Below are positions 707-20,934 of a stretch of 20,934 nt of DNA, piece by piece. Origin of the DNA: a virus; IMG/VR virus record IMGVR_UViG_3300047476_000479, positions 1 through 20,934 of that record. One strand, 5' to 3'. Position numbers and translations under genes: made by a program. The notes beneath the pieces were generated by a model. It was not told the origin of the DNA, did no database searches, and worked only from the letters and a program-made list of their open reading frames with translations. Within the stretch, counting starts at the first letter, position 1; every line of letters begins with the position of its first letter.

Positions 707-1155
707 TATACTTCTTCCAGTGCAATAGATACATCCCAAAATAGCTGTGCTGTGTCAGCCGCATTTGCTTTTACATTTCTTTTTATGATATTAAATGAGC
801 ATGATGTAAAGCTGGCTACAAATTCTTCCGTTCTGGATGAATTATAAGCTATTTTGGCATTAAATGTTCCTTGGCCCTTAGCGCTCAAATAGAATGCCTT
901 TATGTCTTCCGCCCCCCAGCCTCCATCTACCGTCATAGTTGAATATGATGGCAACATGCTCCAGGAGGTAGACACATTCTTCTTATCGGCTATAAACAGC
1001 TTTCTAAGGCTTCCATTGGCCATTCTAGAAGACTGCTCGATACGCTGCACATCTACAGATATTGGAGATCTGTTATGTTCAGTTAATTTTTGCCATGCTC
1101 CAGCGGCGTCCTGTATAAACAGGGCTGATCCTACTGGTAAAGTTAGAGCTGCCAT
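706..1155 (-). CDS. Minor tail / distal tail tube-like protein (149 aa)
   Basis: This is a 149-residue protein with no signal peptide or membrane segment. Its ATG overlaps the tape measure stop codon (TAATG), with AGGGAAG a few bases upstream; its own stop overlaps the next start in the same way. Visible blocks are VDVQRIEQSSRMANGSLRKL, TSWSMLPS and DGGWGAEDIKAFY. I recognise these from small proteins encoded directly downstream of actinophage tape measure genes, usually annotated as minor tail or virion structural protein. The pattern of short beta strands and the position suggest a distal tail protein related to the tail tube fold, which would cap the tube and connect it to the tip. The location in the tail module is solid; the Dit-like role is an inference from synteny. 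Confidence 0.65.
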   Translation of the reverse strand: MAALTLPVGSALFIQDAAGAWQKLTEHNRSPISVDVQRIEQSSRMANGSLRKLFIADKKNVSTSWSMLPSYSTMTVDGGWGAEDIKAFYLSAKGQGTFNAKIAYNSSRTEEFVASFTSCSFNIIKRNVKANAADTAQLFWDVSIALEEV

Positions 1156-4100
1156 TATATATTCTTCCCTTGTCCAACCATTTTAACATTAATCTTGGCC
1201 TTTTGTCCAATGACAACTTCTGCTTTTTTAACAATCATATTTGACAATGCCTCGACATCCATTCCGTCAGACGCATATATTGTTTGATTAACTACATATG
1301 AGTTACCAGAAGCAACATTATCTCTTACGCTATACTGAGCTTTGTTAAAGTTATATCTAGGAGATGCTGCTGCCAATGTTTGCATGACGTCATTAGGCAT
1401 AATATTAGCTTTATTTTTTAGGTGAACAATTTCTGGACCCTTTTCTCCAACGAGGTACATTCCCCTTCCACCGTTTTCGACTCCAGTTGCAGCTGCTCCA
1501 ATAAATACCATGTCGCCAGTTTTTTTAGAAATTCCATATCTCTGCCCATTAACAATAACAGACTCGCCAATTTGAAGATCAAACCTCTTTGTTATTGCTT
1601 CTCTAGCCTCAGCATTTAAAACCTTTACTTTCTTGCCATCAAAAGTTTTTTCTTCTAGGCTCTTAGAGTAATCTCCAGAAACCTTAATATCTTTTCTTAA
1701 TGTTTTTTGTCCAGTAAGAGCATTATATACATCTGCAAGTGTTTTGCCACCAGTTATTGCTCTTGCTGCAGCTGCATCAACACCTACGCCAGTCTTTGAA
1801 TCTGCTAATATCTTAGCTGCATTTTGCTCTGGAGATACTGCGACTTTCTTGCCATCTTTGCCAACAACATATCTGTCCATCTTTTTACCAGTCGCAGCCT
1901 CTACAGCAGCAACTAATCCTGCGGCAGCTGTCTTATTGCTCTTAACATATTCTTCAATAGAGACACCAGCAAGCTTTGCATTTGCATATAACGAGGTCAT
2001 TGATGTATTAACTTTATCAATGGCAGCCTGTTGCTTATCATACTTATCTTTAATCTTATCTAAGCTTTCTCCAGCCAAAGCTGCGCTGTCTGCAAGCCCT
2101 TGTTGCTTTTTGCCCATAGCATCTATTGCTGCTTTTAGAGGAGCATTTGCAGCTTCTGTTGCCTTATCTATAGACTTCATCTGAGACTCTGTCTGTTGCT
2201 GAGAAGTTAATGACTCAAGATCTATTCTGAGTTCCTGTGCTTTTTGAGTATCTCCAGTAGCAGCAGCATTTTGCATCTGCATCCTTGTCTTTTCAATTTG
2301 TCTGCCTAAATCTGCGTCTGCTTGTGCGGCAGCTAATGCTTTCTTTCTGGCATCAGCAAGTTTATTATTTGCTTCAATTTGTTTATTCAGAGAGGCAATT
2401 CTGTCTCTATCTGATATTTGCTGCGATACGGTTTGTCCCTTAAGAGCTTTTGTATAAGATGCAATTTGGCCTTTAAGCTTTTCTAAGTTTGCGTACTGAT
2501 CTTTTAATAGGCCGCCCCTATTAGTTTTTTGAACAGAGTCGCTTACAGCTGTAAATAATGCTGCAGCAGTATTTGCTTGTTCAGCGCTAAGCTTTGATAG
2601 GTCTCCCTTAAAGCCCAAAGCCTCAAGTCTTATCTTTTGCCATGTGCTTACTATTGTATCTGACCCATTAATTATTTTTCTTACCTGTGGATTAGTCTTA
2701 GCCAATTCGTCAACAGTTTCCTTGGTAATTTTTGTATTTTTTTCTTTTGATGTATTAAGCTGATCTAAAATAATTTTTTCTGCTTCTACATAGCTTAAAG
2801 ACTTTACTTTACCAGTGTTATCTTTTGCAACCAGTCTTTCTCTTTTAGCGATTAAATCATTAATTGCTGTTTCTGTTGCCATTAAAGCTGTATTGAGTGA
2901 TGCTGCTCTTTCTTTTTTGCCTTCAGTTCTTGTTGTTTTACCAAAATCTGTAACTGATGCAACTGCTGCAGTTTGAGCGTCTGTTATTCCTTTGAACTCA
3001 GCATTTCCTACAGTAGCTGTTATTGCCTGATCTTTCTTATTTGAAAGTCTTAGCATTGTATAAACTTTTTTAGTTGCTTCGTCAGCAGACATTCCAGCAG
3101 CAATAAGCTGCTCTTTAATTCTGCGAACTGCATCTGGAACCTTGCTTGATGGCTGACGATCTAATGCTTTAATTTGCTCAGCAAATGTTTCTTTAACTTC
3201 AACCTTAAGTTTTTTATATTCTGCAATAGTCATTTGGAATGGAGTGCCGCCATCCTTCATGCTTTCATAAACAAGTTTATTGGCCGCCTCTAAATCTCTT
3301 GAATCCTGAATAACATCCTTCATCTTTGAACCAAAATCAGTAAATCTTAGTCCAGCTTTTTTGGCAGCTTCAGCTGTCATGCCAAATGTAGATATATTTA
3401 ATGTCTGTCCTTCTTTATAATGCTTCCACATTTTGTATCCAGCATAACCAGCTGCTGTTACAGCCGCTAAAGGAGCAACAAGTCCTGCAGCGGCAGCAGC
3501 GGTTGCACCGAACCCTGCTGTCATTGCTCCAGTTGCCACTGAAGCAGCTGCACGTGTTGCAATCATCTTGCCAGCGCCTTTCATAAGAGCTGGGCCAGCC
3601 ATCATTCCAACCATACTACCCATCATTGCGCCATTTTGTCCGCCAATCTTGCCACCGATGGCAGTTCCTGCTGCCATTCCACCCATGGTACCTAGCATCA
3701 TGCCGCCAGCACCTGAACCTAGTTGAGGGTTTACAACACCCTTTGCTTGCATGTATTGAACTGGATGCAGCATTGCTTGTGTAGAATAACGAGCATTTGC
3801 CATAAATGATCTTCTGATAGCTTTATCTGCTCTAGAAGCTGGCACTTCGTTGCCACGTCTATCTATGTACGCTGGGTTAAAAATTGCTCCTGGAGCATTA
3901 GCTGCTATTGTTTTTTGTTCTCCAATTACATTTTTACGATTTTGTATCATTCCAGCGGTTCTGTATCCTGAATCCTTTATCTTAGTTCCAAGCGAACTTA
4001 TACTTGCTGATATATCTGAAGCTGCAATTTTAGTGCTTGTTATTAATTTTGTAGAAGCAGTTTTAAGTCCATTAGAGATAGATGAGAATGCTGAATCTAT

Positions 4101-7100
4101 TGCTATGTTAGCCCTTTGTAGTGGCAGCTTTAATCCTGGCGCATAAGGGAAAGACCCTTGAAGGCCATAAGCATTTGTTCTTACACCACCATTACCAACT
4201 ATAGTTGTTCTAACTACAGATAATGGGCCCTCTTTATATACTGGCTGTTGAATTGGAGAAGATTGATATGAAGCTGCACGAGCTGCTTGCGCTGCAAGTT
4301 GTTCTGCACGTTTTGCTGGATTGCCACTTAGGCCATATGCTTTTTTACCACGACTAATAAGTCCACCAATTTGATACGCAGGGATTATGCCACCAGAATT
4401 TTTTGGAACAAACAGCTCTGGGCCCTTTTCACCAACAAGGTAAGGTCTTCCAGCATTTACTGGGCCTCCATTTTCACGAGCAGCATCTATTACCGCCTGT
4501 AACTTTAATCTATTCTTGCTTGCAGCAACTACCCTAAACTTTCCTCCCATGTAAACTTCGCTTTCGTTTACAGAAACAGGGCCTTGTGGAGACTGGAATG
4601 TTAGATCTGGGAAAATTTCAGAAGCTGGTACTGCATTTCTATTCTTAACAGATGCAACCATCTGCAATTGACCAAAGCCTTCTGCAGTTTCTGGGTTTTT
4701 GCTCCATGAAGAGCGACGCATAATAAATTCTTTGCCTACAAGCTCTGACCATTTGCCTTGTCTTACCAAGTCGCTAATTACTGGAGGCAAGGAATTAATA
4801 TTTCTTACGCCTCTATGTAGTGTGCCAGTAAATTTAGTTCTAAGCGTAGACAGATACGCCTGCACTGCTGGATCATTTATTGCAGCATAGTCACCCTGCA
4901 TATAATTAAATAATGCAGTTTTAGCTCTTGACTCTAGGTCGCCTGTGACAAAAGCTGGTCTGGTGTCTTGCTTGTGATATCCTGTTCCGCTATATCTTAC
5001 ACGTGCACCCTGTAATACATTTCTAATATGCATTGGGGCTTGGTATCTACCAATTTGCAATGGGCCATGCAATGGATCATCATTTACTATGTCCTGATAA
5101 TAAGGACGTGGCATTGGGAATCTGCCAGCAGGCTTTAAAGGATTATATTGTGTGGGCATTTGCCCATTAGGATATGCTTCAAATTTTTTGGCTAACTGTT
5201 TTTCTATCTCTGGGCTGACTCCATCTTTTGCCCAGTTTCTCCAGCTTATTTGGTTCTTTATTGAATTATTAAAAAGATTTGGATTCTTTGATATAAAAGC
5301 ATTGCTATTCATTATTCCATAGTTGCCCTTATTTCTTACAATCCGTCCGCCGACATTATATCCTGGCATCATGTGTGCTAATGCAGTAGCTTCACCATTA
5401 ATTTTTTCTATTCCATAATTACGGTATGACCCCATGTATCTTGTGCCGTTGGCATCATTTGCTGCAATTAGTTTATCTAGATCGGATGTGCCATATGGAT
5501 TTAGTGCAGTTTCTGCCTGTATACCTCTAGCTGCTGGATCAGTTGAATGTGCTCTTCTTTGTCCTGGAATATTTAAGCTTTCTAAATATTCTTTCTTTAA
5601 GCGAAGCTCTTTGGCTATATCTAAATACTCTTTATGCTGAAGCCTAGACCATTCAGCCTCTCCAATTTTTCCAGTTCCACTTAGACCAGATACTATGTTT
5701 GCTCTAGCACGATCAGTAAGCTGCTGTATTTTATCAGGACCAATTTTATTTACCTGAAGGAATCTTGTCAATGAAGGAAGTGCTTGTTGAGATGTTCCAT
5801 TCATCAAGTCACTAACTATATCTGCTTTTTTAGCAGCGCCATGAGCTAGAGCTGTGTTTACACTGGCCCTTAATCTTCCTCCCCAGTTTCCTACATAGTA
5901 ATACTGTCTACTTAATTCCTTAGAAGATGATCTTAGCGCTGAGCCAAATACGCTTTCCTGATATGCCCTAGCTTCTGCTCCTGACAAAGACATTCCTCTG
6001 CCAAGTAGCATCTCTCTAGAGAGTTTTGGATTCCTTCTAAAAAGCTGTCCTAGTATTTTTGTCATAACTGCTGGATTAACTACTCCATAATTTGGTCTTG
6101 ACAAGCTAATCTTTCCGCCACGCATATGCCCTGGTACGGGTCTTCCATTATTAGCTGCATCAACCGCTGCATATAGTGCTGGGTTATCTTGAATGCCTGG
6201 GCCAAAGACTGTTTCCTTTGGAGTAAGCATTGCAGTTATTTCTCCGCCATTATTCTTATAGGTAGAAGGTGCTGCTGCTACAAGTGCAGCATTTCTTGGG
6301 TCAAGTGAGGCTTGCTGGTTTAAAACATATCCACCTACTGGAACTGTTCCTAATCTATCGTCGTAAGATACAGATGCAGGACCAGAAACCTGAGTTTTGT
6401 TTGGCCCAAATGATTCTACTTTTCCACCATCATTGTATCTTCTAGGTATTGTGGTCTGCATGCTATATCCAGCACCAGAAGTTCTTACTCCAAGTCCACG
6501 TGCAATTGAATCTATTAACTTAGATGTTTCTGTTTTATGAAAAAGCTCTTTCATATTTGACTTTCCAGCTGCACTAACAACTGGTTGTGTTGTCAGTGGA
6601 ACTGTTGTAAGACTAATATTTCTAGCTTGTGCTGTAGCAATACCCTGTGCTGTTTGGGCCATCATGGTCTCTACTTGTGCATTTAGTGCAAATATTTGAG
6701 ACCTTGCTGCCTCTACTGTAATCTTGCCAGCCTGTAACTGCTTTACAATTAGTGCAGTCTCATCTGCTGCCATAGATGTTATTTTTGTCATCTGTGGAAG
6801 CAGCGCATTATAGGATTCTGATAATGAGGATGTTATAGTGCCAGTTGCTGCTATCTCAGTTTTTAGCTGTGCAATTTCTGCCTTTGATTGCATTGCAAGC
6901 GCTGCGGTCATTGAATGCCATTTAGCAGCTTCTGCTGCAACTACGCCATTTGATACTCCGTTTGCTGATGTAAGACCATTAATTCTTGGTAGATCATCAT
7001 TCATGTATGTCTGAGGTGAATTTGAAAGTCTTTGATTTACTGGCTTTGGTCCAGGAACCGTAGAGAATATTGTCTCGTCTGCTCTTTGTTGTGGAGTTTT

Positions 7101-8234
7101 TGATCCTGTTGGGATCATATGTGACATATCTCTTGAGTAGGCTCTTCCTACTAGAGGGTTACTCTTATCTACAATTCTTCCTCCGCCTGGCATTACTGTA
7201 TTACCAGCTACTGTTGACATACTGTTAGAAGTTGCAATTGTTGCAGACATTGCATTTTGTCTTAGCTTTTCAAATGATGATGCTAGTGTGAGAACTGCGT
7301 CTGAGAAAGTAGCAGCTGCTTTTGTATCGCTATAAAATGATTGCTCTACATTTTCAGCAGCAGAAGCTGCTGCCATTAATTCTGGTGTTAATAGCTTAAA
7401 GCCTGTTCCGCCCTTGCCAATATTTTTAAGCGCAAATATACCTTTTACAATATACCCAAAGAAGTTTGCTAGTACACCAGTCAACATAATAATTGGGCCA
7501 GCAATTGCTGTTAGGCTTCCAATAAATCCTAATACTGCTTTAATCGGTCCTGGTAGATTTCCAATAAATTTAATAATTCCGTCTATTGCATTTAATACAA
7601 ATGTTCCAACTTTTAAGAACTGCTCTCCAATTACTGCAAGGTCAGCCTTTACGGACTCAAGGGCTCTCCTGTATTTACCAGATGCAGACTCTGTCATCGC
7701 AGTTAATTCTCGCTCAGATATACTTGCAAGATCTTGTGTACTTGCTTTCATCAGGTCTAATACCTGTAGGGTCTGGCTTCCTTCTTTACCAAGATTTTCA
7801 AACAGTGCATTAATTCTTGCAAACTGGAACTTACCAAATAACTGCTCGATAGCTCTTGCTCTTTGCAATGGCTGTAATGCATCTAAAGAATCTTTAAGCG
7901 CCATAACTGTTCCAGTTAAGTTTCCAGCATTTTTATCTACGATACCTGCTAAATCTATACCAAATCCCATGAACTGTTCTCTGGCAACCTTGGTTGGATT
8001 AATAATAGATGCTAATGCTGACTTGAGCGCATTTGCTCCTTCTGAAGCATTAATTCCGCCTTCTCTCATTGCTGTCAAATAAAGTGCAAGATCTTGTACG
8101 TCTCCGCCAAGTGCCTTTACTACTGGGCCAGCTTTAGGAATTGCCTCAACTAAATCTGCAAGGCTTGTCGATGTCTGGTTTTCAACTGCGTTAAGAAAAT
8201 CAATTGATTCTATCAACTTCACCAAGCACCGCAA
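1155..8234 (-). CDS. Tail tape measure protein, main part (TP901/PhageMin_Tail type)
   Basis: This 2359-codon frame encodes most of the tape measure protein, which sets tail length, fills the tube and leaves the virion with the DNA. It starts in mid-domain: residues 12-32 (DFLNAVENQTSTSLADLVEA) belong to the conserved TMP core whose first half is in the frame 8200-9078. The first codon at 8234 is a TTG with no Shine-Dalgarno, so it is probably not a real start. Numbering from that codon: a hydrophobic segment at about 217-268; glycine hinge modules at 600-610, 659-680, 704-720, 959-975, 1254-1280, 1289-1300 and 2252-2282, with YLVGEKGPE present twice; an unknown insert at about 710-955; an ADP-ribosyltransferase-like domain at about 1099-1248; a Gly/Ala/Met-rich region at 1506-1604; and long Lys/Gln/Ala-rich helical, coiled-coil-like sequence at 1650-2100. 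The C-terminus overlaps the next gene (TAATG). Confidence 0.9.
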   Translation of the reverse strand: MRCLVKLIESIDFLNAVENQTSTSLADLVEAIPKAGPVVKALGGDVQDLALYLTAMREGGINASEGANALKSALASIINPTKVAREQFMGFGIDLAGIVDKNAGNLTGTVMALKDSLDALQPLQRARAIEQLFGKFQFARINALFENLGKEGSQTLQVLDLMKASTQDLASISERELTAMTESASGKYRRALESVKADLAVIGEQFLKVGTFVLNAIDGIIKFIGNLPGPIKAVLGFIGSLTAIAGPIIMLTGVLANFFGYIVKGIFALKNIGKGGTGFKLLTPELMAAASAAENVEQSFYSDTKAAATFSDAVLTLASSFEKLRQNAMSATIATSNSMSTVAGNTVMPGGGRIVDKSNPLVGRAYSRDMSHMIPTGSKTPQQRADETIFSTVPGPKPVNQRLSNSPQTYMNDDLPRINGLTSANGVSNGVVAAEAAKWHSMTAALAMQSKAEIAQLKTEIAATGTITSSLSESYNALLPQMTKITSMAADETALIVKQLQAGKITVEAARSQIFALNAQVETMMAQTAQGIATAQARNISLTTVPLTTQPVVSAAGKSNMKELFHKTETSKLIDSIARGLGVRTSGAGYSMQTTIPRRYNDGGKVESFGPNKTQVSGPASVSYDDRLGTVPVGGYVLNQQASLDPRNAALVAAAPSTYKNNGGEITAMLTPKETVFGPGIQDNPALYAAVDAANNGRPVPGHMRGGKISLSRPNYGVVNPAVMTKILGQLFRRNPKLSREMLLGRGMSLSGAEARAYQESVFGSALRSSSKELSRQYYYVGNWGGRLRASVNTALAHGAAKKADIVSDLMNGTSQQALPSLTRFLQVNKIGPDKIQQLTDRARANIVSGLSGTGKIGEAEWSRLQHKEYLDIAKELRLKKEYLESLNIPGQRRAHSTDPAARGIQAETALNPYGTSDLDKLIAANDANGTRYMGSYRNYGIEKINGEATALAHMMPGYNVGGRIVRNKGNYGIMNSNAFISKNPNLFNNSIKNQISWRNWAKDGVSPEIEKQLAKKFEAYPNGQMPTQYNPLKPAGRFPMPRPYYQDIVNDDPLHGPLQIGRYQAPMHIRNVLQGARVRYSGTGYHKQDTRPAFVTGDLESRAKTALFNYMQGDYAAINDPAVQAYLSTLRTKFTGTLHRGVRNINSLPPVISDLVRQGKWSELVGKEFIMRRSSWSKNPETAEGFGQLQMVASVKNRNAVPASEIFPDLTFQSPQGPVSVNESEVYMGGKFRVVAASKNRLKLQAVIDAARENGGPVNAGRPYLVGEKGPELFVPKNSGGIIPAYQIGGLISRGKKAYGLSGNPAKRAEQLAAQAARAASYQSSPIQQPVYKEGPLSVVRTTIVGNGGVRTNAYGLQGSFPYAPGLKLPLQRANIAIDSAFSSISNGLKTASTKLITSTKIAASDISASISSLGTKIKDSGYRTAGMIQNRKNVIGEQKTIAANAPGAIFNPAYIDRRGNEVPASRADKAIRRSFMANARYSTQAMLHPVQYMQAKGVVNPQLGSGAGGMMLGTMGGMAAGTAIGGKIGGQNGAMMGSMVGMMAGPALMKGAGKMIATRAAASVATGAMTAGFGATAAAAAGLVAPLAAVTAAGYAGYKMWKHYKEGQTLNISTFGMTAEAAKKAGLRFTDFGSKMKDVIQDSRDLEAANKLVYESMKDGGTPFQMTIAEYKKLKVEVKETFAEQIKALDRQPSSKVPDAVRRIKEQLIAAGMSADEATKKVYTMLRLSNKKDQAITATVGNAEFKGITDAQTAAVASVTDFGKTTRTEGKKERAASLNTALMATETAINDLIAKRERLVAKDNTGKVKSLSYVEAEKIILDQLNTSKEKNTKITKETVDELAKTNPQVRKIINGSDTIVSTWQKIRLEALGFKGDLSKLSAEQANTAAALFTAVSDSVQKTNRGGLLKDQYANLEKLKGQIASYTKALKGQTVSQQISDRDRIASLNKQIEANNKLADARKKALAAAQADADLGRQIEKTRMQMQNAAATGDTQKAQELRIDLESLTSQQQTESQMKSIDKATEAANAPLKAAIDAMGKKQQGLADSAALAGESLDKIKDKYDKQQAAIDKVNTSMTSLYANAKLAGVSIEEYVKSNKTAAAGLVAAVEAATGKKMDRYVVGKDGKKVAVSPEQNAAKILADSKTGVGVDAAAARAITGGKTLADVYNALTGQKTLRKDIKVSGDYSKSLEEKTFDGKKVKVLNAEAREAITKRFDLQIGESVIVNGQRYGISKKTGDMVFIGAAATGVENGGRGMYLVGEKGPEIVHLKNKANIMPNDVMQTLAAASPRYNFNKAQYSVRDNVASGNSYVVNQTIYASDGMDVEALSNMIVKKAEVVIGQKAKINVKMVGQGKNI
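3425..3719 (-). other. Glycine-zipper, membrane-prone region of the tape measure protein
   Basis: Residues about 1506-1604 of the main tape measure frame are unusually rich in Gly, Ala and Met. The spaced glycines (GMMLGTMGGMAAGTAIGG, then GAMMGSMVGMMAG) continue into an Ala-rich hydrophobic stretch ending AAGYAGYKMW. Such glycine-zipper sequence packs into membrane helices. In tape measure proteins of siphoviruses, hydrophobic segments of this kind are thought to insert in the host membrane during DNA entry. The sequence pattern is direct; the membrane role is inferred. Confidence 0.6.
4491..4942 (-). other. ADP-ribosyltransferase-like domain embedded in the tape measure protein
   Basis: This segment encodes residues 1099-1248 of the tape measure frame that begins at 8234. 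It shows the order expected for R-S-E mono-ADP-ribosyltransferases. An N-terminal helical part contains LFNYMQGDYAAIN. The first strand has TLHRGVRN with Arg1141. Next comes VGKEFIMRRSSWSKNPETAE, whose Ser1175, Ser1176 and Ser1178 match the STS strand and which is followed by the usual A-x-x-F-like helix (TAEGFGQ). Last is SVNESEVYMGGKFRVV with Glu1224 and Glu1226 as the ExE motif, followed by the usual Gly and Phe-x-Val strand. Arg-to-Glu spacing of about 85 residues fits the family. ExE (rather than QxE) would predict arginine as acceptor. This is motif reading; no structure or profile search was run. Glycine hinges flank the segment, so it looks like a cargo insertion. Confidence 0.75.
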
Positions 8235-9078
8235 GTCTTGTTGTTTGTCTAGTTGAATCTAAAAGCTCAGTGCCTTGCTTTCCTGTGGCAGCAATATCTG
8301 CGGCTAAAGCAATTGTTTCATTAAAGTTTGCGCCTAATCCAGATGCTAATTCTCTAGATAGTGCAGCAACATCTTTTCTTACCTTAAGCAAATCTTCTGA
8401 AGATGTTTGAGTAAGTCCGCCATAAACCTTTGTCAGTCTTACAAGCTCTTCGTCTGCTTGTCTAAATGCCTTTGCAGCGGCCATACCAAATGCTGCAAGT
8501 GGTACAGTTAGACCTACTGTAAGTTGTCTACCAGCCCACTGTGTATTTTTACCCCAGTTAATTAATTGATTGGCTCCATCATTCATAACCTTATTCATGA
8601 TAGAAAGCTCTTGTCTTAGAAGCGCCGACTTGTTCTTTGTTGCGTCTAGGCCAGACTGAACCATTACATTGTACTGCATTAATCCTTGAGCATTTTTGCC
8701 CAATGGTTGTATTATTGCATTCTCAAGCATTACCTGCTGTTTAGCTAAATCTCTAACTAATGAACTAGTCTTCTTTGTATGTCCTTGCCAGGTTCTGTAG
8801 TACTCACCAAGCTTCATTCTTCCGCTGTCTAGGTTTTGGCCAAACTTAGATACGTCTGAATTTAATGTTACAAAGTGTCTAGCAAACTGGCCAGTGGAGC
8901 GCATGGTTTCGTCAAACTGACGATTCATGACTCCAACCTGGCTAGTTAGATTTTTATTTAAACCAATTGTTGTTGCTTGGAGTTTTAGGAGTTGGGAAGT
9001 AACCGCCTGTAACTGCGCTGTTAGGCTAGAAAAATTAGCCGTAGCAGTTATGTTGGTTACTATATTTTGATCTGCCAA
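8200..9078 (-). CDS. Tail tape measure protein, N-terminal part (frame broken at its end)
   Basis: This 292-codon frame starts at a TTG at 9078, with AAGGAG six bases upstream inside the end of the chaperone gene. MADQNIVTNITATA is a typical tape measure N-terminus. The protein continues as hydrophilic helical sequence to about residue 170, then enters the conserved core (NWGKNTQWAGRQLTVGLTVP, AFRQADEELVRLTKVYGG, ATGKQGTELLDSTRQTTRLA, VLGEVD). In the family, LGEVD is followed by some 20 residues of helix and then by INFLNAVENQT. Here LGEVDRIN is followed at once by TGA, while the remainder (LIESIDFLNAVENQT) is encoded in the +1 frame on the same bases. I read the two frames as one tape measure gene interrupted by a small deletion or an assembly error. 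Together they would make about 2640 residues, a very long tape measure. Confidence 0.85.
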   Translation of the reverse strand: MADQNIVTNITATANFSSLTAQLQAVTSQLLKLQATTIGLNKNLTSQVGVMNRQFDETMRSTGQFARHFVTLNSDVSKFGQNLDSGRMKLGEYYRTWQGHTKKTSSLVRDLAKQQVMLENAIIQPLGKNAQGLMQYNVMVQSGLDATKNKSALLRQELSIMNKVMNDGANQLINWGKNTQWAGRQLTVGLTVPLAAFGMAAAKAFRQADEELVRLTKVYGGLTQTSSEDLLKVRKDVAALSRELASGLGANFNETIALAADIAATGKQGTELLDSTRQTTRLAVLGEVDRIN

Positions 9079-9081
9079 CTT

Positions 9082-9740
9082 TTACTCCTTTTTGTATCCG
9101 AGTCCTGCTCCGATACCAAACCCTGCTTCTGATGCAAACTGACCCTGTAACGAAACAACATCAGATGCATCTGCAGTTATTCCAAGAGCTTTTCTTCTTA
9201 CATCTTCAAAGCTCTTGCTTTCTTCTTGTTCTCCACCGTCAAGCTCTATGCCTTGTATGGAAGCCAGAAACTTTCTTTTTTCAGATTCAGTCTTTTGCAT
9301 TGCCGAGAAGGTTTGAATCAACTCTGGCATTGAAAGATTGTCTTCCAGCTCTTCGTAATTCTTATAGTTTCCTATCAGAAATACTTCTCCTTCTAATGCA
9401 GCTAGATCTAGTTCTGACCAGCTAGAACCGCTGCTGCTAGCAAATTTGGATCATCCATCTTAATGCCACCGCAAACTTCAAGGATACGATTAATTGTTGG
9501 TACATCTAATACGTCCTCAAATGCGTCTCTATCTGCTACCAATTCTGGAAGTTGCTTTTCTAGTGCTACTGCACAAGCATCAATAAGGATAGTTAAGGTC
9601 TCATCTTCTGTAGTAACTTCTGCAGTCTTGCTGATAGCGGCCATAAACTTTCTAAGCTCTTTAATTGTTAAAGGCTTTAGCTTTACTGTTGCGCCATTCT
9701 GTAGTTGAATCTCTTCTACATCATATACTGTTGTTGCCAA
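9082..9740 (-). CDS. Tail assembly chaperone, long form made by -1 frameshift (GT-like)
   Basis: The short chaperone frame (start 9740) and a downstream frame ending at 9082 are predicted to be joined by a -1 programmed ribosomal frameshift. The join is at the heptamer AAATTTG at 9447-9441, read in frame 0 as A AAT TTG and thus of XXXYYYZ type. The -1 frame opens just one codon before the heptamer. A slip there gives 100 residues from the first frame plus 119 from the second, 219 in total. The extension begins ASSSGSSWSELDLAALEGEV and continues FLIGNYKNYEELEDNLSMPEL and KFLASIQGIELD. I recognise this pattern from the T portion of actinophage tail assembly chaperones. The long form is thought to recruit tube subunits to the tape measure protein during tail assembly. 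The ATG at 9330 in the second frame is unlikely to be a real start. Confidence 0.8.
9408..9740 (-). CDS. Tail assembly chaperone, short form (lambda G-like)
   Basis: This 110-residue acidic protein is the unshifted product and ends GGIKMDDPNLLAAAVLAGQN. The start is a TTG at 9740; AGGAGG six bases upstream decides it, and a candidate promoter lies further upstream. The sequence MATTVYDVEEIQLQNGATVK, then KPLTIKELRKFMAAI and a helical C-terminus, is typical of phage tail assembly chaperones, which bind the tape measure protein and guide tube polymerisation around it and are absent from the finished virion. It sits between the major tail protein and the tape measure protein, as in lambda and most siphoviruses. 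The short and long forms are normally both required, at a fixed ratio set by the frameshift. Confidence 0.8.
   Translation of the reverse strand: MATTVYDVEEIQLQNGATVKLKPLTIKELRKFMAAISKTAEVTTEDETLTILIDACAVALEKQLPELVADRDAFEDVLDVPTINRILEVCGGIKMDDPNLLAAAVLAGQN
9441..9447 (-). promoter_or_regulatory. Candidate -1 frameshift slippery heptamer AAATTTG
   Basis: On the coding strand, frame 0 reads CCA AAT TTG CTA; slipping one base back re-pairs the two tRNAs on AAA and TTT. The -1 frame has a TGA just two codons upstream of the slipped TTT codon and is then open for the whole T-like extension, so the shift must occur between here and the frame-0 stop at 9408. A modest CAGC/GCTG hairpin follows; I see no strong pseudoknot by eye. 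Confidence 0.65.
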
Positions 9741-18355: not shown

Positions 18356-20158
18356 TTAGTCAAAAGATCTTACGAAGTTAGGTGTCCCGTCAGCGCCAGA
18401 GCCGCTTTCAGAGACTGTCATGCCTGTGTCATTTATAGAAAACGAGTTATCTGAGCAATAAAGTCTATAGTGATTGCTTGCCTGCTCTGCTGTAAAATCA
18501 TTTTCGTAAAAAGCTATATTGTTATATGTGCTTGATGTACCATATTCTGAGCCAGACTGATTTTGGTTAAACTTAATATTATCAGCAGATTCAGACAAAA
18601 CTATTATTACGTGGTGTGATACATCTGGCAAAAAGAAGGTGCTAATATTTGTTTGACTTGTTCTGTCAATCCCATTAACGTATATTGCATTAATTCCATT
18701 TTTAGAAATAACCCCATTTGCCGACCAAGCAAGCTGGGATGAGTCTGAAGAAAATAGTATATTACTGGTTCCTCTTGGAGTAAAAAATAACTCTATAGTT
18801 TTAGGGCTAATTGGCAAATCAACAGAAAATCCGTGGCCATCAATCATAGACAAGCCATTATACTTATTCTGCATTCTAACTGGATAGTTATAGTATCCCA
18901 TAGAATAGTCGTAATCAGAGTATATCTTTGCCCCAGAGTTGTCAGAGTAAAAATCTTTATTTGAGTACATGTCTATCTCAAGCATATTGAAGTATGGTAG
19001 ATCAAAAGAGGAGTCGTCTGTACTCATAGTTACTCTAAAATCTAAAATGGGACTATTAAAGTTTTGATTTTTATTAAAGTATGGGACTGGAGCATTATTG
19101 GTACAAGCAATCCATGGCTGACCTGGAATGCTTACCTCTACCGTTATATTATTAACATCTTGTCCATAAGATATTCTAGACGAAACAACTGTTTCTGGAT
19201 TTGGTATGTATATCCTATCCTCATATAAATACGACTTGCTTTCTGCAGATTCGGTTTTTTCAAACTCTATTCTATTAAATCCTGTATTGTAATACGCATC
19301 CCCTGCCACCATTTCAGAAAGTGCTTTATTCCCAGGATATCTAAATGAAGCTGAAGGCTTTACTGTAAGAGAATTTATCGAGAATAATATTCCATTATCG
19401 GGGTAAACAATTTGAGCATACTTAGTTTCTTTGTGTCCTATCTTATAATGCTTTAAGCATATAGATTCTGTAAGCTCATAATCATATATCGCAATTGAAT
19501 CAACTATAAATCTTTTGCCAGCATTCGCTGGTCCAATTTTTATGCTTAATAATTCATTAGAAAATTTAATTGATCCATATATATCTTTTTCTGCTACAAG
19601 TATCCCGTTAATAAATAGAGATAATGTATTTTTTGAGTAGGATCCAACTATATGCATGGCCTGTATTTTAGGTACTTTATGGTTTACATAATGCTCAGAT
19701 CCACATCTAAACAAAACATTTTCATTTTCATAAAATAATCCTATTTGATTTTCTACGTCTCCTACTATTAAATACTCATTTATATCATCCGAGCTTGGAC
19801 TAAACCATGCTTCAATTGAAAATGGGCTATCTGGTTTTTTACTAGTTGCAATACCTAATGCTTTTAGGTTTATGTCAGAATATTCATTAATTTCAGTTCC
19901 TCTGACTCCCGCCCCTATTATTGGAAGAACTTCTATTTCAGAAGAATTAATTGCATATCCTTCCATGGCATTTCCAGAATAATCAATAATTGGGAGGCCA
20001 CTAACTGCAGCATAAGATATTCCATTATCTTTTAAATCTTGATAAGTAGCATAAATAGATTTTAAGCCTGTATAAGAACCAGCTTCTCCAGAACGAACTT
20101 CATCCAATAAAAAGAAAGCTAGTGGGTTATCATTTAAGACAGTATATTTATATGACAT
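18356..20158 (-). CDS. LamG-like tail appendage protein, putative host binding
   Basis: This 600-residue protein has no signal peptide or membrane segment. The N-terminus MSYKYTVLNDNPLAFFLLDE is typical of phage LamG (concanavalin A-like) minor tail proteins. A first LamG-like domain covers about residues 110-245 (PFSIEAWFSPSS, LSLFINGILVAEKDI, FIVDSIAIYDYELTE). A second, more diverged one covers about 450-580 (TIELFFTPRGTSN, GINAIYVNGI, NNIAFYENDFTAEQASNHY). Between them lies beta-rich sequence with ITVEVSIPGQPWIAC. LamG domains bind sugars or cell-surface glycans, so a receptor-binding or adhesive role is likely. It begins three bases after the fibre gene stop, forming a pair with it. The ribosome site is weak (AAGAG). 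Receptor specificity cannot be told. Confidence 0.7.
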   Translation of the reverse strand: MSYKYTVLNDNPLAFFLLDEVRSGEAGSYTGLKSIYATYQDLKDNGISYAAVSGLPIIDYSGNAMEGYAINSSEIEVLPIIGAGVRGTEINEYSDINLKALGIATSKKPDSPFSIEAWFSPSSDDINEYLIVGDVENQIGLFYENENVLFRCGSEHYVNHKVPKIQAMHIVGSYSKNTLSLFINGILVAEKDIYGSIKFSNELLSIKIGPANAGKRFIVDSIAIYDYELTESICLKHYKIGHKETKYAQIVYPDNGILFSINSLTVKPSASFRYPGNKALSEMVAGDAYYNTGFNRIEFEKTESAESKSYLYEDRIYIPNPETVVSSRISYGQDVNNITVEVSIPGQPWIACTNNAPVPYFNKNQNFNSPILDFRVTMSTDDSSFDLPYFNMLEIDMYSNKDFYSDNSGAKIYSDYDYSMGYYNYPVRMQNKYNGLSMIDGHGFSVDLPISPKTIELFFTPRGTSNILFSSDSSQLAWSANGVISKNGINAIYVNGIDRTSQTNISTFFLPDVSHHVIIVLSESADNIKFNQNQSGSEYGTSSTYNNIAFYENDFTAEQASNHYRLYCSDNSFSINDTGMTVSESGSGADGTPNFVRSFD

Positions 20159-20161
20159 GTC

Positions 20162-20934
20162 TTACTGCTCTTCTAGTACTTTAACTCTCGCTGTAAGTTC
20201 TTGTACTGCTTTAATAAGTGGCGATATAAATTCTTCATATCTTAGTGCCTGCTCAGAATTTTCATCATCTTTATCCAAAAGTACCCAGCCAGCAAAATCT
20301 ACTCCAGATTCATCCAGAACTTCTTTTACTTCTTGAGCTATTAGGCCATAATGTGTCCTGGATCCAGGCAACGAAACTATGTCTCCATCAACAACTTCTT
20401 TGCTTCCTTCAATAAATTTATAACTTACTGGATTTAGTTTATTAATAAAGTCAAGCCCAAGAACTGATTCTGACACGCTTGTCTTTAGTCTTATGTCTGA
20501 TGTATTAATTGTTCCAGTATTAGAATATATTGTTTTCCAAAATCTGTTTGAAGAAACTCCAGAGCCAGCGTCGATGGGCTGACCAATTGAATATAGATTA
20601 TTTGCCAGCGGATACCAGTTTGAGTTTACTCCGTAACCTGATGTTGTTGGGATATTCAAACTAATAGTTGTTGGAACTGGATCAATAGTCGCACTTGATC
20701 CAGGTATACCTTGAGGGCCTTGAGGCCCAGTCGCACCTGTTGCTCCACGTGGAATAGTAAAATTAAATACAGCTTCTGTAGATGTTCCTGAATTTGTAAC
20801 TGAAGCATTTGTGCCAGCTGCACCAGTTGTTGTTGTACCAACGGCTAGTGTTGTTGGTCCTGCTGGACCTTGTGGGCCTTGTGGGCCTTCTGGGCCTTGT
20901 GGCAAAACTAAATTCAATACCTGCTCTGGGCTTG
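20162..20934 (-). CDS. Collagen-like tail fibre with C-terminal S74 chaperone, 5' end cut by window edge
   Basis: The frame is open to the right edge. A TTG at 20917 could be taken as the start, but the frame continues upstream (SPEQV) and no ribosome site is visible, so the gene probably begins outside. Counting from that TTG: Gly-X-Y collagen-like repeats at 8-21 and 58-73; between them a TTTTGAAGTNASVTNSGTST-type spacer often seen in phage fibres; a head region at about 75-130; then a peptidase S74 intramolecular chaperone from Ser140. The SDIRLK motif supplies the Ser140/Lys145 dyad that autocleaves in endosialidase-type fibres, releasing the last 112 residues after trimer folding. HYGLIAQEVKEVL and the terminal coiled coil LTARVKVLEEQ complete the domain. 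Fibres of this type bind the host surface. Confidence 0.82.
   Translation of the reverse strand, partial: SPEQVLNLVLPQGPEGPQGPQGPAGPTTLAVGTTTTGAAGTNASVTNSGTSTEAVFNFTIPRGATGATGPQGPQGIPGSSATIDPVPTTISLNIPTTSGYGVNSNWYPLANNLYSIGQPIDAGSGVSSNRFWKTIYSNTGTINTSDIRLKTSVSESVLGLDFINKLNPVSYKFIEGSKEVVDGDIVSLPGSRTHYGLIAQEVKEVLDESGVDFAGWVLLDKDDENSEQALRYEEFISPLIKAVQELTARVKVLEEQ

What the first reader, a model, noticed from the sequence alone, without database searches (positions are those of the whole stretch)
4491..4942. ADP-ribosyltransferase-like domain built into a tape measure protein
Seen: the segment has, in order, a helical AIN-containing lead, HRGV with Arg1141, G-K-x-F...SSWSKN with Ser1175-1178, and NESEVYMGGKFRV with Glu1224/Glu1226 (numbering from 8234). 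Known: this is the R-S-E signature of arginine-type ADP-ribosyltransferases (PF03496/PF01129-like); T4 Alt is a head-packaged ADP-ribosyltransferase injected with DNA, and ADP-ribosyltransferase domains occur in phage MuF-type proteins. Inference: because tape measure proteins leave the virion during ejection, this would be a tail-delivered effector that modifies a host protein (or RNA) at the first moment of infection, or blocks a competing phage or defence. I do not know of a described system of this kind in a tape measure protein.
Basis: partly seen in the sequence, partly recalled or inferred. Interest (0 to 1): 0.88.

Follow-up and report, generated by a model that had tools for sequence, protein, structure and literature searches.

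The report
ADP-ribosyltransferase module in phage tape measure
The phage protein that sets tail length and is pushed out at infection carries a swappable toxin-type enzyme domain with its catalytic residues intact, and relatives carry a kinase-like domain in the same place, so these tails probably deliver enzymes into the bacterium along with the DNA.

Summary
Residues about 1091-1250 of the tape measure ORF (window 4485-4964, minus strand) form an R-S-E-type ADP-ribosyltransferase (ART). The AlphaFold model hits solved ARTs (C3, VIP2, iota-type; best VIA Z 10.9). Arg1141, Ser1176-x-Ser1178 and Glu1224-x-Glu1226 are invariant in 43 distinct relatives (lowest pairwise identity 33%); median dN/dS is 0.13. 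PF03496 itself stays below its cut-off.

The ART is one of several interchangeable modules in a cargo region between two hydrophobic segments. The nearest tape measures by backbone have other modules there. Slot 1 holds one of three module families; slot 2 holds either the ART or a kinase-like (HipA/CtkA fold) and/or small helical module, never both. All nine combinations occur.

Most likely these actinophage-type siphovirus tape measures carry host-modifying enzymes that are ejected with the tape measure and act at entry. Catalysis and delivery are inferred. In this contig the tape measure frame is broken by a 67-base deletion absent from six relatives checked (mutation or assembly error). 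I found no published ART in a tape measure. Known neighbours: T4 Alt, MuF-VIP2 fusions, and the tape-measure-derived effectors Tme and Sle1.

The parts
4485..4964 (-). ADP-ribosyltransferase core, ORF residues 1091-1250
   Evidence: AlphaFold and fold search; 43 unique relatives
4812..4814 (-). Arg1141 codon, the R of R-S-E
   Evidence: invariant in 43 of 43
4701..4709 (-). Ser1176-Trp1177-Ser1178, the S-x-S motif
   Evidence: invariant in 43 of 43
4557..4565 (-). Glu1224-Ser1225-Glu1226, the E-x-E motif
   Evidence: both Glu invariant in 43 of 43, middle residue variable
4965..5315 (-). stretch before the ART (residues 974-1090), only partly conserved among ART-bearing relatives
   Evidence: conservation profile
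4416..4469 (-). motif GGPVNAGRPYLVGEKGPE, downstream border of the cargo region
6084..6119 (-). linker 1 GGKISLSRPNYG (residues 706-717)
5373..6074 (-). slot-1 module A (residues 721-954), fold unknown
   Evidence: shared with ART-bearing L062/L064 and ART-less L109, L111, L112
5316..5351 (-). linker 2 GGRIVRNKGNYG (residues 962-973)
4332..4367 (-). linker 3 GGLISRGKKAYG (residues 1290-1301)
1155..8234 (-). main part of the tape measure gene
   Evidence: PF10145 E 2e-19, phrog_10030 E 1e-73
8200..9078 (-). first part of the tape measure gene, start TTG 9078 after AAGGAG
   Evidence: aligns with residues 1-293 of intact relatives
8208..8209 (-). junction of a 67-base deletion that breaks the tape measure frame in this contig
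   Evidence: six relatives have the bases
7434..7544 (-). hydrophobic segment before the cargo region (residues 231-267)
   Evidence: hydropathy
3450..3515 (-). hydrophobic segment after the cargo region (residues 1574-1595)
   Evidence: hydropathy
9082..9740 (-). two overlapping tail assembly chaperone frames just before the tape measure
   Evidence: position and layout as in Streptomyces phages Angela and Tomas; the frameshift itself not tested

Best explanation
It is a catalytically competent R-S-E-type mono-ADP-ribosyltransferase domain carried as an exchangeable cargo module inside the tape measure protein of a siphovirus related to actinophages of the family Stanwilliamsviridae. The tape measure fills the tail tube and is pushed out ahead of the DNA. 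The cargo region lies between two hydrophobic segments, so when the tape measure inserts in the host membrane the region could be exposed to the cytoplasm, where NAD+ is. There a few enzyme copies would ADP-ribosylate a host macromolecule at the moment of entry, to seize host functions or disarm a defence. Other phages of the group put a kinase-like module in the same slot, as expected for a changing set of host-directed effectors. Shown: fold, conserved catalytic residues, purifying selection, position in the tape measure, module exchange. Inferred: enzymatic activity, entry into the cytoplasm, target and benefit.
For: ART fold in model and fold searches; R, S-x-S and E-x-E invariant in 43 unique sequences, dN/dS 0.13; ART is the most conserved stretch of the tape measure among ART-bearing relatives, 79% against 40% for the rest (with the caveat that they were collected through the ART); domain sits in ORFs with the tape measure backbone; nearest backbone relatives have it replaced; ART and kinase-like module exclude each other in slot 2 and combine with three slot-1 families in all nine ways; kinase-like fold of the alternative. 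Precedents: T4 Alt and MuF-ARTs are virion-delivered (PMC9503650), tape-measure-derived effectors Tme and Sle1 are active enzymes or functional modules in injection systems (PMC11126660, PMC13277306), tape measure proposed to leave the tail and form an envelope channel in phage Douge (PMC13033339).
Against: No biochemistry; no virion or delivery data; PF03496 cut-off not reached; TM-scores to solved ARTs modest (0.35-0.5); host and target unknown; the domain must pass an approximately 35 Angstrom tube unfolded and refold; frame broken in this contig.
Confidence: 0.7

Rival explanations
1. The ART is active but works in the producing cell late in infection, before or apart from assembly: it modifies host or phage proteins, or excludes a competing phage, and is not a tail-delivered effector.
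For: Tape measures are made late and in the cytoplasm; virion incorporation of the module was not tested; the module would lengthen the ruler if it stayed in it.
Against: A late enzyme need not be fused to the one tail protein that is ejected; exchange with a kinase-like module at the same slot in the same protein points to delivery through that protein.
Confidence: 0.15
2. The ART fold is kept as a catalytically dead structural or binding domain of the tape measure.
For: Folds of enzymes are sometimes reused; no activity shown.
Against: R, S-x-S and both Glu invariant in 43 sequences while the residue between the Glu and most others vary; the slot is replaceable by unrelated folds, so no common structural duty is evident.
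Confidence: 0.1
3. The ART acts outside the bacterial host, for example on a grazing protist, as VIP2- and C3-like ARTs act on eukaryotic proteins.
For: The closest solved folds include eukaryote-directed toxins.
Against: Fold similarity does not tell the target; bacterial-target ARTs with immunity proteins are equally close (8za7, 6dre); no uptake part seen.
Confidence: 0.03
4. The match is a chance motif and no ART is present.
For: Pfam, PHROGs and PDB sequence searches with the window protein alone show no ART.
Against: Fold searches are dominated by ARTs; the only sub-threshold Pfam hits of the close relatives are the ART families PF03496 and PF07357.
Confidence: 0.02

Closest known systems
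Phage T4 Alt and the Alt/VIP2 family
   Same: R-S-E ART carried in the virion; Alt is injected with the DNA and modifies host RNA polymerase (PMC5512222, PMC9503650)
   Different: Alt is a separate head protein; here the ART is a module of the tail tape measure
MuF-VIP2 (MuF-ART) fusions of Microbacterium, Gordonia and other phages
   Same: ART fused to a virion structural protein and thought to be delivered (PMC9503650, PMC7302621)
   Different: Fusion partner is the head protein MuF, not the tape measure
Polyvalent proteins of phages and conjugative elements
   Same: Very large virion proteins with several exchangeable enzyme modules, ARTs the commonest (PMC5512222)
   Different: Those ARTs are of the H-Y-D type; the word tape does not occur in that paper
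Tme and Sle1 effectors of actinobacterial contractile injection systems
   Same: Tape-measure-related proteins with interchangeable effector domains that are ejected (PMC11126660, PMC13277306)
   Different: Bacterial contractile systems, C-terminal nuclease or other domains, no ART mentioned; here an infectious siphovirus with internal cargo
Bacterial ART toxins and effectors (C3, VIP2, iota-type, ART-ARH and T6SS ARTs)
   Same: Fold and R, S-x-S, E-x-E residues
   Different: About 10-20% identity, Trp in the middle of the S-x-S motif, below the PF03496 cut-off, no separate delivery or binding domain seen
Tape measures with cell-wall hydrolase domains (e.g. M23 in Streptomyces phages Angela and Tomas)
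   Same: Enzyme domain inside a related tape measure
   Different: Those open the cell wall; an ART needs cytoplasmic NAD+ and would act on host macromolecules

Membership tests
R-S-E clade of ADP-ribosyltransferases | ART fold | tested here: met
   Foldseek E 2e-4, VIA Z 10.9 with rmsd 3.6 over 134 residues; the top rows are all ARTs
R-S-E clade of ADP-ribosyltransferases | Arg on the first core strand | tested here: met
   Arg1141 in predicted strand E75-84, invariant in 43
R-S-E clade of ADP-ribosyltransferases | S-x-S motif | tested here: met
   S1176-W-S1178 in strand E110-119, invariant; Trp stands where Thr is usual
R-S-E clade of ADP-ribosyltransferases | E-x-E (or Q-x-E) motif with catalytic Glu | tested here: met
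   E1224-x-E1226 invariant
R-S-E clade of ADP-ribosyltransferases | NAD-dependent transfer activity | not testable with these tools
   needs biochemistry
Pfam PF03496 (ADPrib_exo_Tox) | score above the curated cut-off of 23.4 bits | tested here: not met
   best 12.6 bits, E 0.0026; E 0.059 in 3 of 20 members; so it is not filed under PF03496
Phage tape measure protein | PhageMin_Tail or tape measure profile | tested here: met
   PF10145 E 2e-19, phrog_10030 E 1e-73
Phage tape measure protein | longest gene of the virion module, right after the tail assembly chaperones | tested here: met
MuF-ART fusions | MuF domain in the same protein | tested here: not met
   no MuF hit in the whole ORF
CIS effectors of the Tme/Sle1 kind | gene in a contractile injection cluster with sheath and DUF4157 partner or domain | tested here: inconclusive
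   no DUF4157 in the ORF; the window holds portal and capsid genes of a phage, but the record is partial and a sheath was not sought in the whole genome
Kinase superfamily, for the slot-2 alternative module K in relatives | kinase fold with Lys, Glu, catalytic Asp, Asn and metal Asp | tested here: inconclusive
   VIA top 50 nearly all kinases, best Z 10.4; K74, D155, D157, N162 and D170 invariant and E85 at least 90% conserved in 24 sequences; Foldseek TM-scores low; activity untested

The most novel reading that the evidence does not exclude
A large group of actinophage-type siphoviruses uses the tape measure protein as a modular delivery chassis: two slots bounded by the N-terminal backbone and a GEKGPE motif accept different modules (ART, HipA/CtkA-like kinase, and families of unknown fold), which are ejected into the host with the tape measure and act as first-minute effectors or counter-defence.
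Probability: 0.55. Interest if true: 0.9.

Novelty: new variant of a known kind. Interest (0 to 1): 0.8.

Why it matters
Virion-delivered ARTs are known from phage heads, and tape-measure-derived effectors are known from bacterial injection machines. A phage whose own tape measure carries an ART, swapped with a kinase-like domain in relatives, would join the two. It would make the tail itself an enzyme carrier, explain part of the extreme length and mosaicism of tape measures, and give a ready list of unexplored host-targeting modules. It also makes testable whether the middle of a tape measure reaches the cytoplasm, since the enzyme needs intracellular NAD+.

Tried and rejected
Pfam, PHROGs and PDB sequence searches with the window domain alone: no ART; profile searches of PDB sequences with A1 and A2: nothing relevant. 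tblastn against 50,697 phage records with the ART, module A and module K: no match, so the modules are not seen in annotated phages at this sensitivity. GTDB genome scan with the ART: no relative. hhalign of A2 with two Gordonia phage GMA2 proteins (Orf14, reported as VIP2-like, and Orf10): no significant match, only a short stretch near the C-terminus of Orf14 at the corresponding place; a viral scan with Orf14 gave nothing. ADP-ribosyl hydrolase PF03747 in ten related contigs: none (partial records). Slot-1 modules: no convincing Pfam identity for the mixed slots, and no PDB sequence match for module A. Literature: searches for tape measure together with ADP-ribosyl, VIP2, toxin domain or domain shuffling gave no paper that, in the listings and passages read, describes an ART in a phage tape measure; not every listed paper was opened, and only open-licence papers are held. 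The BFVD search need not cover long tape measures, so an unnoticed database entry is possible. Residue-level superposition on an ART active site was not available. Three submission slips with frame coordinates were repeated correctly or dropped.

Full report
WHAT IS THERE. The window is a partial virus record on whose minus strand lie a portal (PF04860), prohead protease, major capsid protein, connector genes, major tail protein, two tail assembly chaperone frames, the tape measure and distal tail genes. The capsid protein is about 58-61% identical to those of Streptomyces phages. The two Streptomyces phages examined, Angela and Tomas, are Stanwilliamsviridae, and their gene order from capsid to tape measure matches. 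An actinobacterial host is therefore likely but not shown. The ORF 8234-1155 is a tape measure by PF10145 (E 2e-19) and phrog_10030 (E 1e-73), and 358 phage records match its N-terminal part.

CORRECTION TO THE GENE. The true tape measure starts at TTG 9078 after AAGGAG. The ORFs 9078-8200 and 8234-1155 align with residues 1-293 and from about 310 on of single uninterrupted ORFs in relatives. At DNA level 67 bases present in six relatives are missing at window 8208/8209. This is either a real mutation in this phage or an assembly error; the gene is intact elsewhere in the family.

THE ART. IMG/VR scans gave 21, 37 and 50 loci with relatives, many of them the same contigs. In 43 distinct sequences, with pairwise identity down to 33%, Arg1141, Gly1142, Arg1173, Arg1174, Ser1176, Trp1177, Ser1178, Glu1224, Glu1226, Gly1230, Gly1231 and Phe1233 are invariant, while the residue between the two Glu varies. 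Median dN/dS in 24 unsaturated pairs is 0.13. The AlphaFold model (mean pLDDT 73.7; core blocks mostly 77-93) has the ART order of helices and strands. Foldseek against PDB returns C3, Certhrax, C3larvin, BECa and CDTa at E 2e-4 to 1e-3 with probability near 1.00, and anthrax lethal factor lower down. VIA gives Z 10.9 (rmsd 3.6, 134 residues) to an ART-ARH effector and 9-10 to VIP2, iota-type and other ARTs. BFVD returns phage ARTs. By sequence it is diverged: PF03496 is seen only below its cut-off (E 0.059; 12.6 bits). I therefore call it an R-S-E ART but do not file it under PF03496.

IN TAPE MEASURES, BUT NOT IN ALL OF THEM. Nearly all ART loci lie in ORFs that also match the N-terminal tape measure backbone; the exceptions are a contig fragment (L057) and a split ORF (L088). 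Conversely, of the 80 best relatives of the tape measure N-terminus, 67 of them with at least 1600 aa, only 9 have the ART. The nearest ones by backbone, L108-L117, are 76-88% identical up to residue 717-975 and 56-71% identical from about 1249-1285 on, and carry something else in between.

A MODULAR CARGO REGION. In 106 distinct tape measures slot 2 holds the ART (43), K and G modules (27), G alone (11), K alone (2) or nothing recognised (23); none has both the ART and K or G. Slot-1 modules group by hhalign into three families: A; B118/F157/H124; C137/D146 (the H124-G match there is a boundary effect of how I cut H124). Counts for ART / K+G / G alone are 3/3/3 for A, 11/15/2 for the B family and 2/4/2 for the C family, so all nine combinations occur. 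Slot 1 is unassigned in 51 tape measures. The ART group was collected through the ART and the other group through the backbone, so the proportions are not prevalences, and contig ends truncate some proteins. In the window the modules are bracketed by three copies of a linker GG[KRL]I-x(4-8)-YG at residues 706, 962 and 1290 and by the motif GGPVNAGRPYLVGEKGPE; in many relatives this linker pattern is absent or differs (62 of 106 have no match to it). Hydrophobic segments flank the cargo region at 231-267 and 1574-1595.

MODULE K. Its alignment shows a glycine-rich G-x-GG-x-Y, VFVKP, an Ala-Glu-x-Arg helix, GD-[KR]-DL-x(3)-N and a later D-x-G. The AlphaFold model (pLDDT 76.6) matches kinases: CtkA Z 10.4, PI4KII beta 9.8, HipA 9.0, HipT 8.4. 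Foldseek TM-scores are low, 0.2-0.35, so the class is likely rather than certain. That two unrelated macromolecule-modifying folds share one slot is the best indirect evidence that slot 2 carries effectors.

HOW IT LIKELY WORKS. In mycobacteriophage Douge the tape measure is a trimer in a channel about 35 Angstrom wide and is proposed to leave the tail and form a channel reaching the inner membrane (PMC13033339). An ART of about 150 residues would have to pass unfolded or nearly so and refold. If the hydrophobic segments enter the membrane, the region between them could face the cytoplasm, where NAD+ is. A few copies can suffice because they are catalytic. The target is unknown; by analogy with Alt it may be RNA polymerase or translation, or a defence component. 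These steps are inference.

COMPARISON. T4 Alt and MuF-VIP2 fusions are the functional precedents (PMC9503650, PMC5512222, PMC7302621); a word search of the main text of the first two found no mention of tape measures. Tme and Sle1 show that tape measure relatives in actinobacterial contractile systems carry exchangeable, active effector domains (PMC11126660, PMC13277306). The enzyme domains known to me in phage tape measures are cell-wall hydrolases, as seen here for Angela and Tomas. So the parts have precedents and the combination appears new: new variant of a known kind.

VERDICT. My estimates: ART fold about 0.97; active enzyme about 0.85; tail-delivered host effector about 0.7; modular tape measure cargo as a general strategy in this phage group about 0.55.

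Noticed in passing
   Followed up: yes
L111:11899-12873 and 23 further relatives (alignment A4): A kinase-like module (HipA/CtkA/PI4K fold) occupies the ART's slot in related tape measures; no Pfam or phage-record match.
   Followed up: partly
window 5373-6074; slot-1 regions of L118, L124, L137, L146, L157: Slot-1 modules fall into three families without known identity; possibly further effectors.
   Followed up: partly
L062 and L064 (tape measure ORFs of 4160 and 4190 aa); L101 (3834 aa): Unusually long tape measures, with several hundred to over a thousand residues beyond the common architecture, content unknown.
   Followed up: no
L109 against L111: Two tape measures that share modules A and G and a close backbone differ by the kinase-like module (2499 and 2878 aa): a natural test of whether cargo counts in tail length.
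   Followed up: no
window 18356-20932, minus strand: A large ORF (600 aa) and a collagen-like (GPQGPQGPAG) ORF whose C-terminal part (SDIRLKTSV...) looks like an S74-type intramolecular chaperone, lying before the portal gene; judged by eye only.
   Followed up: no
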